Source: Ahaetulla prasina (lineage: Eukaryota; Chordata; Lepidosauria; Squamata; Colubridae). Taken from it: 64,000 nucleotides of DNA. The translations under genes and the position numbers were made by a program. The notes beneath the pieces were generated by a model. It ran no database searches. It was not told the origin of the DNA and saw only the letters and a program-made list of their open reading frames with translations. Below are positions 1,594 through 5,187 of the stretch, in pieces (within the stretch, counting starts at the first letter, position 1; each line of letters starts with the position of its first letter). Where the stretch lies: the NCBI RefSeq assembly GCF_028640845.1, contig NC_080541.1, forward strand, positions 33,385,935 to 33,449,934, written 5' to 3'.

Positions 1594-2065
1594 TTTGTTC
1601 CTAAATTACTGCAAAATGATACAAACATCTACTCATAGTGACAGAATCCTAAAAAGATTATAAAGTACCCAAACGATTTATTTTGTATACCTTGCAGGGA
1701 TTTATAAAATTGGAGGATTGTTTTGCATTTTTGTTCAAAGTAATACATATACATGTTAGGAATTATTTTTACTGTCATGTTTTCATATGTAAGTAAATAA
1801 TCTATTTTAGTCAGCCTGCTATTGCTGACTAAATTTGGCAAGGCAGTAACTGATGAAAAAAACACAAACTTCATGTTTGAGATTTTTAGACATTGTGTTG
1901 TATAATGGATATTTTAATACCTGCCTGAGCCAGTTCTACATTGAAGGCTCTCAGGGCCAAGACAGAGGCACGTGATTCTGCAGGCAATAGCAGTGCACAG
2001 AGGAAGCCTTCATAATCCCGTTTTCTAGATATACAAAGAATAAATAAGAGCATTTGCTTTCATTA
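1594..2065. repeat. local duplication block X, copy 1 (carries NDUFAF6 exon 2)
   Basis: About 470 bp near-identical to 2858-3327 and 4434-4903. Copy 1 lacks the about 280 bp that follow X in the other copies and instead joins directly to block Y at 2066. Its left edge is the Tc1 array; the junction sits in TTTCATTTGTTCC, which shares TTTCA with the corresponding point in the other copies, so a short-homology join is likely. Confidence 0.93.
1925..2024 (-). CDS. NDUFAF6: NDUFAF6 exon 2, distal copy
   Basis: Third of three copies of the same 100-nt coding exon. On the minus strand a TATATCTAG acceptor is followed by A, which completes the split Arg codon of exon 1, and then by 33 codons starting KRDYEGFLCALLL and ending AFNVELAQ. 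These match the start of the squalene/phytoene-synthase-like domain of the complex I assembly factor NDUFAF6. The 3' boundary is CAG followed by GCAGGT: either a GC donor (100-nt exon ending at 1925) or a GT donor 4 nt further on (exon ending at 1921). The coding sequence is identical to the copies at 3189-3288 and 4766-4865. This copy is nearest to the (unseen) exon 3, so in a simple transcript it is the one next to exon 3. Confidence 0.88.
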
Positions 2066-2667
2066 TACAATACCATACATATGCTTTACACAACATGCTT
2101 TTAGAATACACTTAAGGGAGCAGTGGTGTGCTATGGTCCATAAGGTTGGTCCAAGAGTTGGATTCAATTTAGCAACAGAGAAACAACAATGACAGCAACC
2201 GTATTGTCTTGGGAAAAAATAAAGAGCAAACCTGAAAAATGGGTGAACTATTTATTCTGTGGTCGTCACTGCAAAAAAATCAGGGGATGACACTCCAGAG
2301 CAGGGGTTTCCAACCTTGACAACTTTGGAGGACTTCAACTCCCAGAATTCCCCAGCCACAAAAGCTGGGGAGTTGAAGTCTGGGAGTCAAAGTCCTCCAG
2401 GCTTAAAGGTTGGAGATCCCTGTTTCAAATGACTGTTCTAGCAAAGGAGACTGCAGGACAACAGTTTTCTGGGGTTTGAGTGCCAGGAGACAAGATCAGC
2501 CACAGTACTTGCAACTGCAGTGGAGCCTTTTAAAGGACACTAAGATTGCAAACCTTATTTTCTAATCACTTTTTGGAATTGCCTGTTAACCATCTTAAAA
2601 TTATTAGAGACCTTTGGAAAGACAAGTTTGAAAAGTCTTCATCAGGCGAGTTTAGTTTCAACTCTGA
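2066..2667. repeat. local duplication block Y, copy 1
   Basis: About 600 bp, nearly identical to 5762-6363, including an embedded hAT-like hairpin MITE (2301-2422). It ends where the sequence switches to the right half of a second hAT-like element (about 2667-2777). Confidence 0.92.
2301..2422. mobile_element. hAT-like hairpin MITE (CAGGGGTTTCCAACC ends)
   Basis: About 122 bp. The left half, with GGACTTCAACTCCCAGAATT, is followed by its inverted counterpart ending GGTTGGAGATCCCTG, so the whole element can fold on itself. Its copy in block Y at 5997-6118 is almost identical. No clean target duplication is visible at this locus. Confidence 0.85.
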
Positions 2668-2777
2668 AGCACAATTGATGTTAAGATGGCTATGCCCACC
2701 TGGCCACGGCCACCTTGGCCCCAAGGTCAAATACCACCCTGATGCAGCCCTCAATGAAATCAAGTTTGACACCCCTG
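2667..2777. mobile_element. right part of a hAT-like element ending GTTTGACACCCCTG
   Basis: Matches the right part of the element at 3730-4168 (GAAGCACAATTGATG to the terminal GACACCCCTG). The left part is missing here because block Y is joined directly to it. It is followed by TTCTAAAG, the same 8 bp found next to the related insertion at 4244-4353. Confidence 0.7.
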
Positions 2778-3607
2778 TTCTAAAGGGACAGTTGAATATA
2801 TCAAAAGCAAATGATGGAATATCCCAGAGCAATTCATTAAAGTCAGTATTATTTTCATTTGTTCCTAAATTACTGCAAAATGATACAAACATCTACTCAT
2901 AGTGACAGAATCCTAAAAAGATTATAAAGTACCCAAACGATTTATTTTGTATACCTTGCAGGGATTTATAAAATTGGAGGATTGTTTTGCATTTTTGTTC
3001 AAAGTAATACATATACATGTTAGGAATTATTTTTACTGTCATGTTTTCATATGTAAGTAAATAATCTATTTTAGTCAGCCTGCTATTGCTGACTAAATTT
3101 GGCAAGGCAGTAACTGATGAAAAAAACACAAACTTCATGTTTGAGATTTTTAGACATTGTGTTGTATAATGGATATTTTAATACCTGCCTGAGCCAGTTC
3201 TACATTGAAGGCTCTCAGGGCCAAGACAGAGGCACGTGATTCTGCAGGCAATAGCAGTGCACAGAGGAAGCCTTCATAATCCCGTTTTCTAGATATACAA
3301 AGAATAAATAAGAGCATTTGCTTTCATTACAAGCTCATTTAGCCAGTAGAACAGATAAAAAATGTCTCACTTCAATTATGTTTTTAATTTTATTTATTAA
3401 TCAAATTGATATGATTGCACAGAATGAGATTCCAAGCAGCATCCAAAAATCATTTTGCAGTTATTCTCTAAATCAAGGGATGTAAACTGGTACTCTCCAT
3501 ATGGTCCAGTTTACAATTTTTAGAACTATGAAGCGCTGATCTGCAGGCTGGCTAACGAGAATTGTAGTCCAGATCTTCAGGAGCGTTCAGTGTCAGTATG
3601 TCCATTC
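2778..3607. repeat. local duplication, copy 2 (blocks pre-X, X and Z; carries NDUFAF6 exon 2)
   Basis: About 830 bp repeated at 4354-5187 with only a few differences. It contains pre-X (2778-2857), X with exon 2 (2858-3327) and Z (about 3328-3607). After Z it joins a short repeat of TTCTAAAGGGACAG and then the start of block Y (3634-3730, also at 5726-5825). Confidence 0.93.
3189..3288 (-). CDS. NDUFAF6: NDUFAF6 exon 2, middle copy
   Basis: Second copy of the 100-nt exon, with coding sequence, acceptor (ATCTAG) and donor (CAG/GCAGGT) identical to the other two. It lies 1264 bp from the distal copy and 1577 bp from the proximal copy. Since 100 is not a multiple of 3, splicing in two copies would shift the reading frame, so at most one copy can serve in a normal mRNA. 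Confidence 0.88.
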
Positions 3608-3633
3608 CTGTTCTAAAGGGACAGTTGAATATA

Positions 3634-3730
3634 TCAAAAGCAACTACAAAAGCAGATGGTTTTATTGTACAATACCATACATATGCTTTACACAACATGC
3701 TTTTAGAATACACTTAAGGAGCAGTGGTGT
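3634..3730. repeat. start of block Y, short copy
   Basis: About 97 bp matching 5726-5825 (and, from TACAATACC, 2066-2130). It ends at GCAGTGGTGT, where the sequence switches into a hAT-like element whose terminus shares those bases. Confidence 0.85.
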
Positions 3731-4168
3731 AAAACTCAAGGGCCTGTGGGCTGGATCAGGCCCACGGGGTGTTTCGATCTGGCCCGTGGGATTGCCAAGG
3801 AAACAGTGAAGAACTGGTCCGCAGTGCCTCTGTCAGTGAAAACAGAGCTTGGGAGGGCAGCATGTGGCCAACCCGAGCTCCATTTTCACTGACAGACGGT
3901 TGCAGGAGATCATTGCAGTCGAAAACAGAGCTTGGGAGGGCAGCATGTGGCCAACCCGAGCTCCATTTTCACTGACAGACGGTTGCAGGAGATCATTGCA
4001 GTCGAAAACAGAGCTTGGGAGCCTGTTTTCGCTGGCAGAGCACTCGGGCCACCAGAGAAGCACAATTGATGTTAAGATGGCTATGCCCACCCTGGCCACG
4101 GCCACCTTGGCCCCCAAGGTCAAACACAACCCTGATGCAGCCCTCAATGAAATCAAGTTTGACACCCT
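3730..4168. mobile_element. hAT-like non-autonomous element (GGTGT.AAACTC ... GTTTGACACCCTTG)
   Basis: About 440 bp. The left end GTGTAAAACTCAAGGGCC and the right end AAGTTTGACACCCTTG are inverted relatives, the typical ends of a squamate hAT-like family. An internal 83-bp tandem duplication lies at 3838-4003. The left edge coincides with the duplication breakpoint, so the true first bases are uncertain. Confidence 0.7.
3838..4023. repeat. 83-bp tandem duplication (2.2 copies)
   Basis: Units at 3838-3920 and 3921-4003 are identical over GAAAACAGAGCTTGGGAGGG and onward. A third partial unit (4004-4023) begins in the same way. Confidence 0.95.
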
Positions 4169-4243
4169 TGCTCTATAGTTATAACCACTTTCTTAAAGAT
4201 TGGTCAATAGCTACTTAAAAGTATCAGGATACCAATTCTAAAG

Positions 4244-4353
4244 CACAGGTATCAAACTCGATCACGTCATGTGACGTCACATATCATGACATTTTTGCCT
4301 TTGCGGAGCCAGGGTGTGCGTGACCCGCACGGGCCGCCAGTTTGACACCCCTG
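4244..4353. mobile_element. hAT-like MITE with perfect 8-bp target duplication
   Basis: 110 bp from CACAGGTATCAAACTCG to CAGTTTGACACCCCTG (inverted ends), flanked by TTCTAAAG at 4236-4243 and 4354-4361. An 8-bp duplication is the hallmark of hAT elements. Confidence 0.85.
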
Positions 4354-5187
4354 TTCTAAAGGGACAGTTGAATATATCAAAAGCAAATGATGGAATATCC
4401 CAGAGCAATTCATTAAAGTCAGTATTATTTTCATTTGTTCCTAAATTACTGCAAAATGATACAAACATCTACTCATAGTGACAGAATCCTAAAAAGATTA
4501 TAAAGTACCCAAACGATTTATTTTGTATACCTTGCAGGGATTTATAAAATTGGAGGATTGTTTTGCATTTTTGTTCAAAGTAATACATATACATGTTAGG
4601 AATTATTTTTACTGTCATGTTTTTATATGTAAGTAAATAATCTATTTTAGTCAGCCTGCTATTGCTGACTAAACTTGGCAAGGCAGTAACTGACTGAAAA
4701 AAACACAAACTTCATGTTTGGGATTTTTAGACATTGTGTTGTATAATGGATATTTTAATACCTGCCTGAGCCAGTTCTACATTGAAGGCTCTCAGGGCCA
4801 AGACAGAGGCACGTGATTCTGCAGGCAATAGCAGTGCACAGAGGAAGCCTTCATAATCCCGTTTTCTAGATATACAAAGAATAAATAAGAGCATTTGCTT
4901 TCATTATAAGCTCATTTAGCCAGTAGAACAGATAAAAAGTGTCTCACTTCAATTATGTTTTTAATTTTATTTATTAATCAAATTGATATGATTGCACAGA
5001 ATGAGATTCCAAGCAGCATCCAAAAATCATTTTGCAGTTATTCTCTAAATCAAGGGATGTAAACTGGTACTCTCCATATGGTCCAGTTTACAATTTTTAG
5101 AACTATGAAGCGCTGATCTGCAGGCTGGCTAACGAGAATTGTAGTCCAGATCTTCAGGAGCGTTCAGTGTCAGTATGTCCATTCCTC
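4354..5187. repeat. local duplication, copy 3 (blocks pre-X, X and Z; carries NDUFAF6 exon 2)
   Basis: Matches 2778-3607. Differences from copies 1 and 2 are few, for example TTTTTATATG for TTTTCATATG, CTAAACTTGG for CTAAATTTGG, and one extra base in GTAACTGACTGAA. It is followed by unduplicated intron sequence (5188-5725) and then block Y copy 2, so this copy sits in what looks like the original order. Confidence 0.93.
4766..4865 (-). CDS. NDUFAF6: NDUFAF6 exon 2, proximal copy
   Basis: Copy nearest to exon 1 (intron of about 2.1 kb). Exon 1 ends with CG, and this exon starts with A AAA CGG GAT TAT GAA, giving the unbroken peptide CLDLLR-KRDYEG across the junction, the expected NDUFAF6 order. 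The 33 codons after the split Arg show no stop. Flanking X, Z, W and Y blocks are in the fullest order here, so this is the best candidate for the ancestral exon. The donor is CAG/GCAGGT as in the other copies. NDUFAF6 is a mitochondrial protein needed early in complex I assembly (ND1 module). Confidence 0.9.

What the first reader, a model, noticed from the sequence alone, without database searches (positions are those of the whole stretch)
1594..5187. NDUFAF6 exon 2 is present three times with identical coding sequence
The 100-nt exon, its acceptor and its donor are identical at 1925-2024, 3189-3288 and 4766-4865. The flanking introns differ only by a few bases and by block deletions. As 100 is not divisible by three, only one copy per mRNA keeps the frame, which makes a natural set of candidate mutually exclusive exons or, more likely, redundant ones. 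Complex I assembly factors are dosage-sensitive, so mis-splicing would matter. An assembly artefact is a real alternative.
Basis: partly seen in the sequence, partly recalled or inferred. Interest (0 to 1): 0.8.

Follow-up and report, generated by a model that had tools for sequence, protein, structure and literature searches.

The report
Snake NDUFAF6 exon 2, three copies

Summary
A 100-nt exon on the minus strand, with its acceptor and donor, lies exactly at 1925-2024, 3189-3288 and 4766-4865; the search of the 1.77-Gb assembly found no other copy. It is exon 2 of NDUFAF6 in a snake. The other eight exons were each found once on the same 232-Mb contig, and exon 1 + one exon 2 + exons 3-9 gives an intact 334-aa protein. 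Exon 2 uses a GC donor; the nearby GT would break the frame. Skipping exon 2, or joining two or three copies, gives an early stop where NMD is expected. The copies are not simple repeats: they are joined at short homologies, two joins at hAT-like transposon ends and one with a 36-bp patch. Copies A and B are identical over 471 bp; C differs by 0.6%. Best reading: at least two recent duplication steps plus deletions, leaving interchangeable exons, with NMD removing multi-copy mRNAs. Independent inclusion could give at most 4/9 productive mRNA, so the array is a burden unless inclusion is coordinated or two copies are ignored. A false duplication or haplotype mixture remains possible (about 0.25). 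No RNA or reads were available, and regulated mutually exclusive use is not shown.

The parts
6980..7179 (-). NDUFAF6 exon 1, coding part (200 nt, ends in phase 2; donor gtgagg)
   Evidence: Translation and splice site
4766..4865 (-). exon 2 copy C, first in transcript order
   Evidence: Exact 100-mer; identical acceptor and GC donor
3189..3288 (-). exon 2 copy B, second in transcript order
   Evidence: Exact 100-mer
1925..2024 (-). exon 2 copy A, last in transcript order
   Evidence: Exact 100-mer
1594..2066 (-). block L, copy A (exon 2 and close flanks), cut off on its intron-2 side by the 174-bp satellite
   Evidence: 471/471 identical to copy B; join at tttca
2776..3606 (-). preL + L + M, copy B
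   Evidence: 5 transitions, 0 transversions, 1 indel in 831 against copy C
4352..5183 (-). preL + L + M, copy C
   Evidence: As for copy B
5754..6364 (-). block R, copy D, upstream of C in the transcript; likely the ancestral R
   Evidence: 9 substitutions in 599 against 2066-2664
2066..2668 (-). block R, copy A, joined directly to L (M and the 5195-5730 segment missing)
3607..3643 (.). about 36-bp patch matching preL, between M and the start of R in copy B
   Evidence: Junction contexts
3660..3730 (-). first about 70 bp of R in copy B, joined to a hAT-like left end at cagtggtgt
3725..4170 (.). hAT-like element 1 (left limit approximate) with an 83-bp tandem inside; 8-bp ctctatag follows its right end, no second copy of it in 1-7000
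4244..4353 (.). hAT-like element 2, 110 bp, flanked by ttctaaag on both sides
2666..2777 (.). right part of hAT-like element 1 fused to the right end of element 2, before copy B's preL
427..1593 (.). 174-bp tandem array, 6.8 copies, behind a transposase remnant (1-357, DDE_3), abutting copy A

Best explanation
A real, recent, lineage-specific tandem duplication array around exon 2 of the only NDUFAF6 gene found in this snake assembly. Ancestral order from the left (inferred): hAT1, hAT2, preL, L (exon 2), M, U, R, exon 1. Step 1 (inferred): a unit from the left end of hAT1 to about 60-70 bp into R was duplicated head to tail at the shared cagtggtgt, giving C and a second copy; that copy lost U in a deletion with a 36-bp preL patch, and lost the stretch between the two hAT right ends by exchange at agtttgacaccc. 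Step 2 (inferred): a further copy A arose (join R|hAT1 at gaa) and lost M and U. Function (inferred): the three exons are interchangeable. Any single copy gives the normal 334-aa protein (shown by translation); two or three copies give a TGA five codons into the second copy and none gives a stop at codon 72 (shown), so those mRNAs should be removed by NMD (inferred). Protein output is whatever share of transcripts takes exactly one copy.
For: Single gene found: 11 matches of Vipera NDUFAF6 at E<=10 (13 candidates scored), all on C3:33372894-33393113, exon 2 three times, the other exons once each. Exon 2 at 3 places of the assembly, these. Intact 1005-nt CDS; 7 of 8 introns GT-AG, intron 2 GC-AG. 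Stops computed with the real downstream exons; for two copies the stop lies 85 nt before the next junction. No N in the 77,434 bases of left flank plus window. Joins at short homologies and hAT ends. In the two longest comparisons 12 of 14 substitutions are transitions, P=8e-5 if random; with the hAT1 right part (1 ts, 1 tv, 2 indels in 101) 13 of 16, P=1.2e-4. A and B agree against C/D: 0 substitutions in 471 of L, and 2 shared bases in 57 bp of R, with 1 indel between them there.
Against: No reads, depth or RNA seen. With independent inclusion at 0.95 per copy only 0.7% of mRNA is productive, and at most 4/9 at any p, so survival of such an array in a gene whose rest is intact is surprising. 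The transition bias excludes random errors but not allelic differences. R (A/D, 1.5%), preL-L-M (B/C, 0.6%) and the hAT1 right part (2 of 101) differ in divergence; R against preL-L-M is not significant (Fisher p=0.11), nor is A/B 0/471 against A/C 3/471 (p=0.25), so the order of steps rests on few sites. The window has another 1.87-kb tandem duplication with 7 clustered indels, a hint of local consensus trouble.
Confidence: 0.58

Rival explanations
1. Assembly artefact: alleles or error-bearing reads of one locus were laid side by side (a false exon gain), and the animal has one exon 2 (or two on one haplotype).
For: False exon gains within genes are a described error class, and heterozygosity near 1% occurs (0.95% for zebra finch in its table; PMC9516828, passages). 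The differences of 0.6-1.5% are in that range. A second tandem duplication in the window has clustered small indels, and a third is perfect.
Against: No gap letters in 77,434 bases, whereas that paper lists gaps between copies as a mark. Alleles laid side by side need one join per extra copy; here at least five distinct joins, two at transposon ends and one with a patch, must exist in some molecule. No further copy elsewhere in the assembly.
Confidence: 0.25
2. Real array, but a damaging (null or weak) allele: splicing joins all three exons by default and little protein is made; it persists as a rare or heterozygous variant.
For: All three copies have identical core sites, so the default expectation is inclusion of all; every multi-copy mRNA has a stop.
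Against: Divergence between copies suggests more than a fleeting existence (0.6-1.5%; about 1.5-4 My if 2e-9 per site per year, a recalled rate). Exons 1 and 3-9 are intact and the protein is 94% identical to Vipera's, though a young null would look the same.
Confidence: 0.12
3. Regulated mutually exclusive exons, for example the palindromic element in R upstream of C pairing with that downstream of B, looping out C and B so that A is chosen.
For: Complementary arms 2326-2350/6071-6095 and 2375-2400/6021-6046 flank B and C. Pairing of the two elements with each other (-147 kcal/mol) is about as stable as both folded alone (-78 and -71). [quoted passage not shown]
Against: The copies encode the same peptide, so choice between them would gain nothing. 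Local hairpins should form faster than a 3.6-kb loop (inference). Short spacing and splice-type mismatch are both excluded.
Confidence: 0.05

Closest known systems
Tandem exon duplications / tandem duplicated exon substitution events (PMC9013439, abstract and introduction; PMC9741552, abstract start and passages)
   Same: Neighbouring exons that arose by genomic duplication inside a gene, same phase, same length, one usable at a time
   Different: Per PMC9741552 most such events are ancient and their peptides homologous, not identical; here the three copies are identical and young, so no isoform diversity arises
Mutually exclusive exons kept apart by frameshift and NMD (PMC5740500, passages)
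   Same: Length not divisible by three; joint inclusion gives a premature stop
   Different: No evidence of exclusive use; identical sequence and sites in all copies
Conserved GC-AG intron of NDUFAF6 (PMC7242645, passages: 'intron 6', human to zebrafish)
   Same: One GC-AG intron in NDUFAF6
   Different: Here it is the intron after coding exon 2; whether it is the same intron under another numbering was not checked
False exon gain in genome assemblies (PMC9516828, passages)
   Same: An exon duplicated within its gene at about 99% identity
   Different: No gaps; several rearrangement joins, some at transposon ends

Membership tests
NDUFAF6 | Full-length similarity to vertebrate NDUFAF6 | tested here: met
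   334 aa from this gene, 94% identical over 100% to Vipera latastei NDUFAF6, E 2.1e-207
NDUFAF6 | SQS_PSY domain | tested here: inconclusive
   Exon 1+2 piece alone 21 bits, below the 26-bit cut-off, matching 34 of 263 positions; listed relatives carry PF00494 precomputed; the full protein was not rescanned
Tandem exon duplication | Copies of an exon with flanking intron DNA in the same gene and orientation | tested here: met
Mutually exclusive exons | Joint inclusion non-productive | tested here: met
   Stop at codon 105 for two or three copies
Mutually exclusive exons | Junction reads from each copy to both neighbours and none between copies (or only frame-breaking ones) | not testable with these tools
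   No RNA data held
Mutually exclusive exons | Structural cause: short inter-exon intron or U2/U12 mismatch | tested here: not met
   Introns 1477 and 1164 nt; identical sites
GC-AG intron | Coding frame requires the GC donor | tested here: met
   CAG|GC gives the intact CDS; the GT four bases on gives a stop at codon 108. Of 12 squamate proteins read, 8 join LAQ directly to exon 3, 3 read on with Ala, 1 ends five residues early
False duplication | Gaps between copies | tested here: not met
   N count 0
False duplication | Half read depth, 1-copy k-mers | not testable with these tools
   No reads held
hAT transposons | 8-bp target duplication and terminal inverted repeats | tested here: met
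   Element 2 at 4244-4353: ttctaaag on both sides, CACAGGTATCAAACT at one end and AGTTTGACACCCCTG at the other (imperfect inverted repeat). For element 1 only the right side was seen. Superfamily recalled; no transposase looked for

The most novel reading that the evidence does not exclude
The array is fixed and productive: the snake tolerates three identical frame-breaking exons because the duplicated palindromes in R, which flank B and C, or strict first-come pairing make splicing choose exactly one copy. It would be a newborn mutually exclusive cluster caught before the exons diverge.
Probability: 0.07. Interest if true: 0.75.

Novelty: new member of a known kind. Interest (0 to 1): 0.42.

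Why it matters
If real, the locus offers three exons with identical sequence and identical splice sites that differ only in order and distant flanks. Which copy is used would show directly whether transcription order, intron length or context decides inclusion, and how a single-copy respiratory gene survives an array whose default splicing should be non-productive. It would also show the starting state from which frameshift-type mutually exclusive exons could evolve. If false, it is a clear example of a false exon gain without gaps.

Tried and rejected
Rejected: chance similarity (exact 100-mers); a second NDUFAF6 gene or processed copy as the source of the extra exons (11 matches, all at this locus); the GT four bases after CAG as the real donor (frame broken); exon identity as evidence of selection (0.6-1.0 differences expected in 100 nt, chance of none 0.38-0.55); known structured RNAs in 1-9000 (none of 4227 families at gathering score).

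Led nowhere: solved structures for the exon 1-2 peptide (0 matches); a scan for a few short TP53INP1-type motifs, recalled from memory, to show synteny (only a loose 4-residue motif and NDUFAF6's own peptides hit; synteny is therefore neither shown nor refuted). Literature: 89 papers hold NDUFAF6 and exon, 20 listed, none of the 20 titles or abstract starts speaks of duplicated NDUFAF6 exons; 12 papers hold two of NDUFAF6, snake, exon duplication; 10 listed, none of the 10 holds both NDUFAF6 and exon duplication; 374 papers, 8 listed, not relevant. Searches gave the general papers. The searches of the own genome for the U segment and for hAT1 did not complete.
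Full report
What is there. The own assembly became searchable: 1,772,332,521 bases in 745 contigs, the window being C3:33385935-33449934 on a contig of 231,952,326 bases. In that assembly the 100-mer matches 3 places, all 100%, all in this window (3 candidates, 3 scored).

Which gene. On the minus strand, exon 1 (7179-6980, 200 nt) followed by one copy of the 100-mer reads MAASAG...YCLDLLR-KRDYEGFLCALLLPAESRASVLALRAFNVELAQ. Residues 56-100 found 215 proteins at E<=0.001 among 232 candidates, 120 of them listed; the first six listed are from snakes (Thamnophis, Erythrolamprus, Vipera, Laticauda, Naja). 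Vipera NDUFAF6 against the own genome gives 11 matches at E<=10, all on C3:33372894-33393113 minus: exon 2 three times, each other exon once. With splice sites set, exon 1 + one exon 2 + exons 3-9 is a 1005-nt open frame of 334 aa, 94% identical to Vipera over its full length. The gene is therefore the only one found, and intact if one exon 2 is used. The host is a snake by its closest proteins, probably caenophidian (group recalled); the species is not identified.

The donor. In all three copies exon 2 is followed by GCAGGTATTA. The frame and the relatives require the exon to end at CAG, so the donor is GC; the other seven introns begin with GT. Using the GT four bases on gives a stop at codon 108. 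I read 12 squamate proteins: the 9 snake entries in the two listings and 3 of at least 12 lizard entries. Of the 12, 8 pass directly from LAQ to exon 3, 3 (Ophiophagus, Crotalus, Lerista) read on with Ala after LAQ, and 1 (Naja) ends five residues early. The last four look like gene predictions that could not use a GC donor, which suggests that the GC donor is old in squamates; this is inference. PMC7242645 (passages) reports a GC-AG 'intron 6' of NDUFAF6 conserved from human to zebrafish; whether it is this intron was not checked. None of the 12 carries the exon 2 peptide twice, and of 169 proteins held none matches the exon 2 motif LLLP..R more than once (148 once, 21 not at all).

Splicing arithmetic. 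Exon 1 ends in phase 2 and exon 2 is 100 nt. Of the 8 subsets of copies, 3 (each single copy) keep the frame and give the same protein; 4 (two or three copies) give TGA five codons into the second copy, 85 nt before the next junction when two copies are used; skipping all gives a stop at codon 72, in exon 3. These stops are placed for NMD by the usual 50-55-nt rule (established knowledge). If copies were included independently, productive mRNA would be 3p(1-p)^2: at most 4/9, and 0.7% at p=0.95. So either inclusion is coordinated, or two copies are mostly ignored, or the allele is harmful, or the array is not real.

How the array arose. The blocks are: L (exon 2 and close flanks; three copies), preL and M (copies B and C), R (full in A and D, about 70 bp in B), and hAT-like ends between them. 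hAT-like element 2 (4244-4353) has ttctaaag on both sides; element 1 has ctctatag after its right side, and that octamer occurs only once in 1-7000, as expected if its left end is a rearrangement join. Joins: satellite|L at tttca; L|R in A with almost no homology; R|element 1 at gaa; element 1|element 2 right ends at agtttgacaccc; M|patch at ttctaaag; patch|R at aaaagcaa; R|element 1 left end at cagtggtgt. The 36-bp patch in B matches preL. Such joins fit replication template switching and end joining (inference). Divergence: A/B 0 of 471; B/C 5 transitions and 1 indel in 831; A/D in R 9 of 599 (7 transitions); hAT1 right part 2 of 101 with 2 indels; in the 57 bp of R that B keeps, B shares 2 bases with A against D and has one indel of its own. 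The order C/D first, A/B second is favoured but rests on few sites: R against preL-L-M p=0.11, A/B against A/C p=0.25. The identity of the exon itself says nothing about selection (chance of no difference 0.38-0.55).

Real or artefact. For real: no N in the 77,434 bases of left flank plus window, a chromosome-size contig, at least five non-trivial joins, 12 of 14 substitutions transitions in the two longest comparisons (P=8e-5 for random errors; 13 of 16 with the hAT1 part, P=1.2e-4), no copy elsewhere. Transition bias does not exclude allelic differences. Against: no reads; divergence in the range of alleles; false exon gains are a described class (PMC9516828, passages); another 1.87-kb head-to-tail duplication at 9327-13064 has 10 substitutions and 7 indels, the indels all within 9657-9885, which looks like a consensus problem there. 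I put 0.25 on artefact or allele mixture.

Mutually exclusive exons? Structural causes are excluded: inter-copy introns of 1477 and 1164 nt, same splice sites. A frameshift/NMD filter is possible; 377 (60%) of the human clusters, 629 in all, have such exon lengths (PMC5740500, passages). A long-range pairing of the palindromes in the two R copies would loop out C and B; its predicted energy (-147 kcal/mol) is about that of the two local hairpins (-78 and -71), so it is allowed but not favoured. Since all copies encode the same peptide, there is no isoform to regulate.

Verdict. Observation confirmed; gene and frame argument confirmed; 'redundant exons' favoured over 'mutually exclusive'; artefact not excluded. 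A young tandem exon duplication in a known class, made interesting by the identity of three copies, the GC donor and the frame conflict in a gene found only once.

Noticed in passing
9327-13064: Head-to-tail duplication of about 1.87 kb, 10 substitutions and 7 one- or two-base indels between copies; the indels lie in 9657-9885, suggesting consensus errors in one copy.
   Followed up: partly
45019-45388: Perfect head-to-tail duplication of a 182-bp unit, either very recent or an assembly overlap.
   Followed up: no
46538-51322: Minus-strand retroelement frames with reverse transcriptase, a tyrosine-recombinase-like domain (just below cut-off) and a LAP2alpha-like domain; looks like a DIRS-type element with long open frames (type recalled).
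   Followed up: partly
1-1593: C-terminal piece of a transposase (DDE_3; Tc1/mariner type recalled) followed by 6.8 copies of a 174-bp repeat that directly abuts exon 2 copy A.
   Followed up: partly
2297-2408, 5993-6104, 7388-7496: Copies of a palindromic foldback repeat; the first two flank exon 2 copies B and C.
   Followed up: partly
L015/L016 and relatives P0121, P0130, P0007, P0046 (exon 2/3 border): Public NDUFAF6 predictions of king cobra, timber rattlesnake, Indian cobra and a skink differ from the other relatives at the exon 2/3 border, apparently because the donor is GC.
   Followed up: partly
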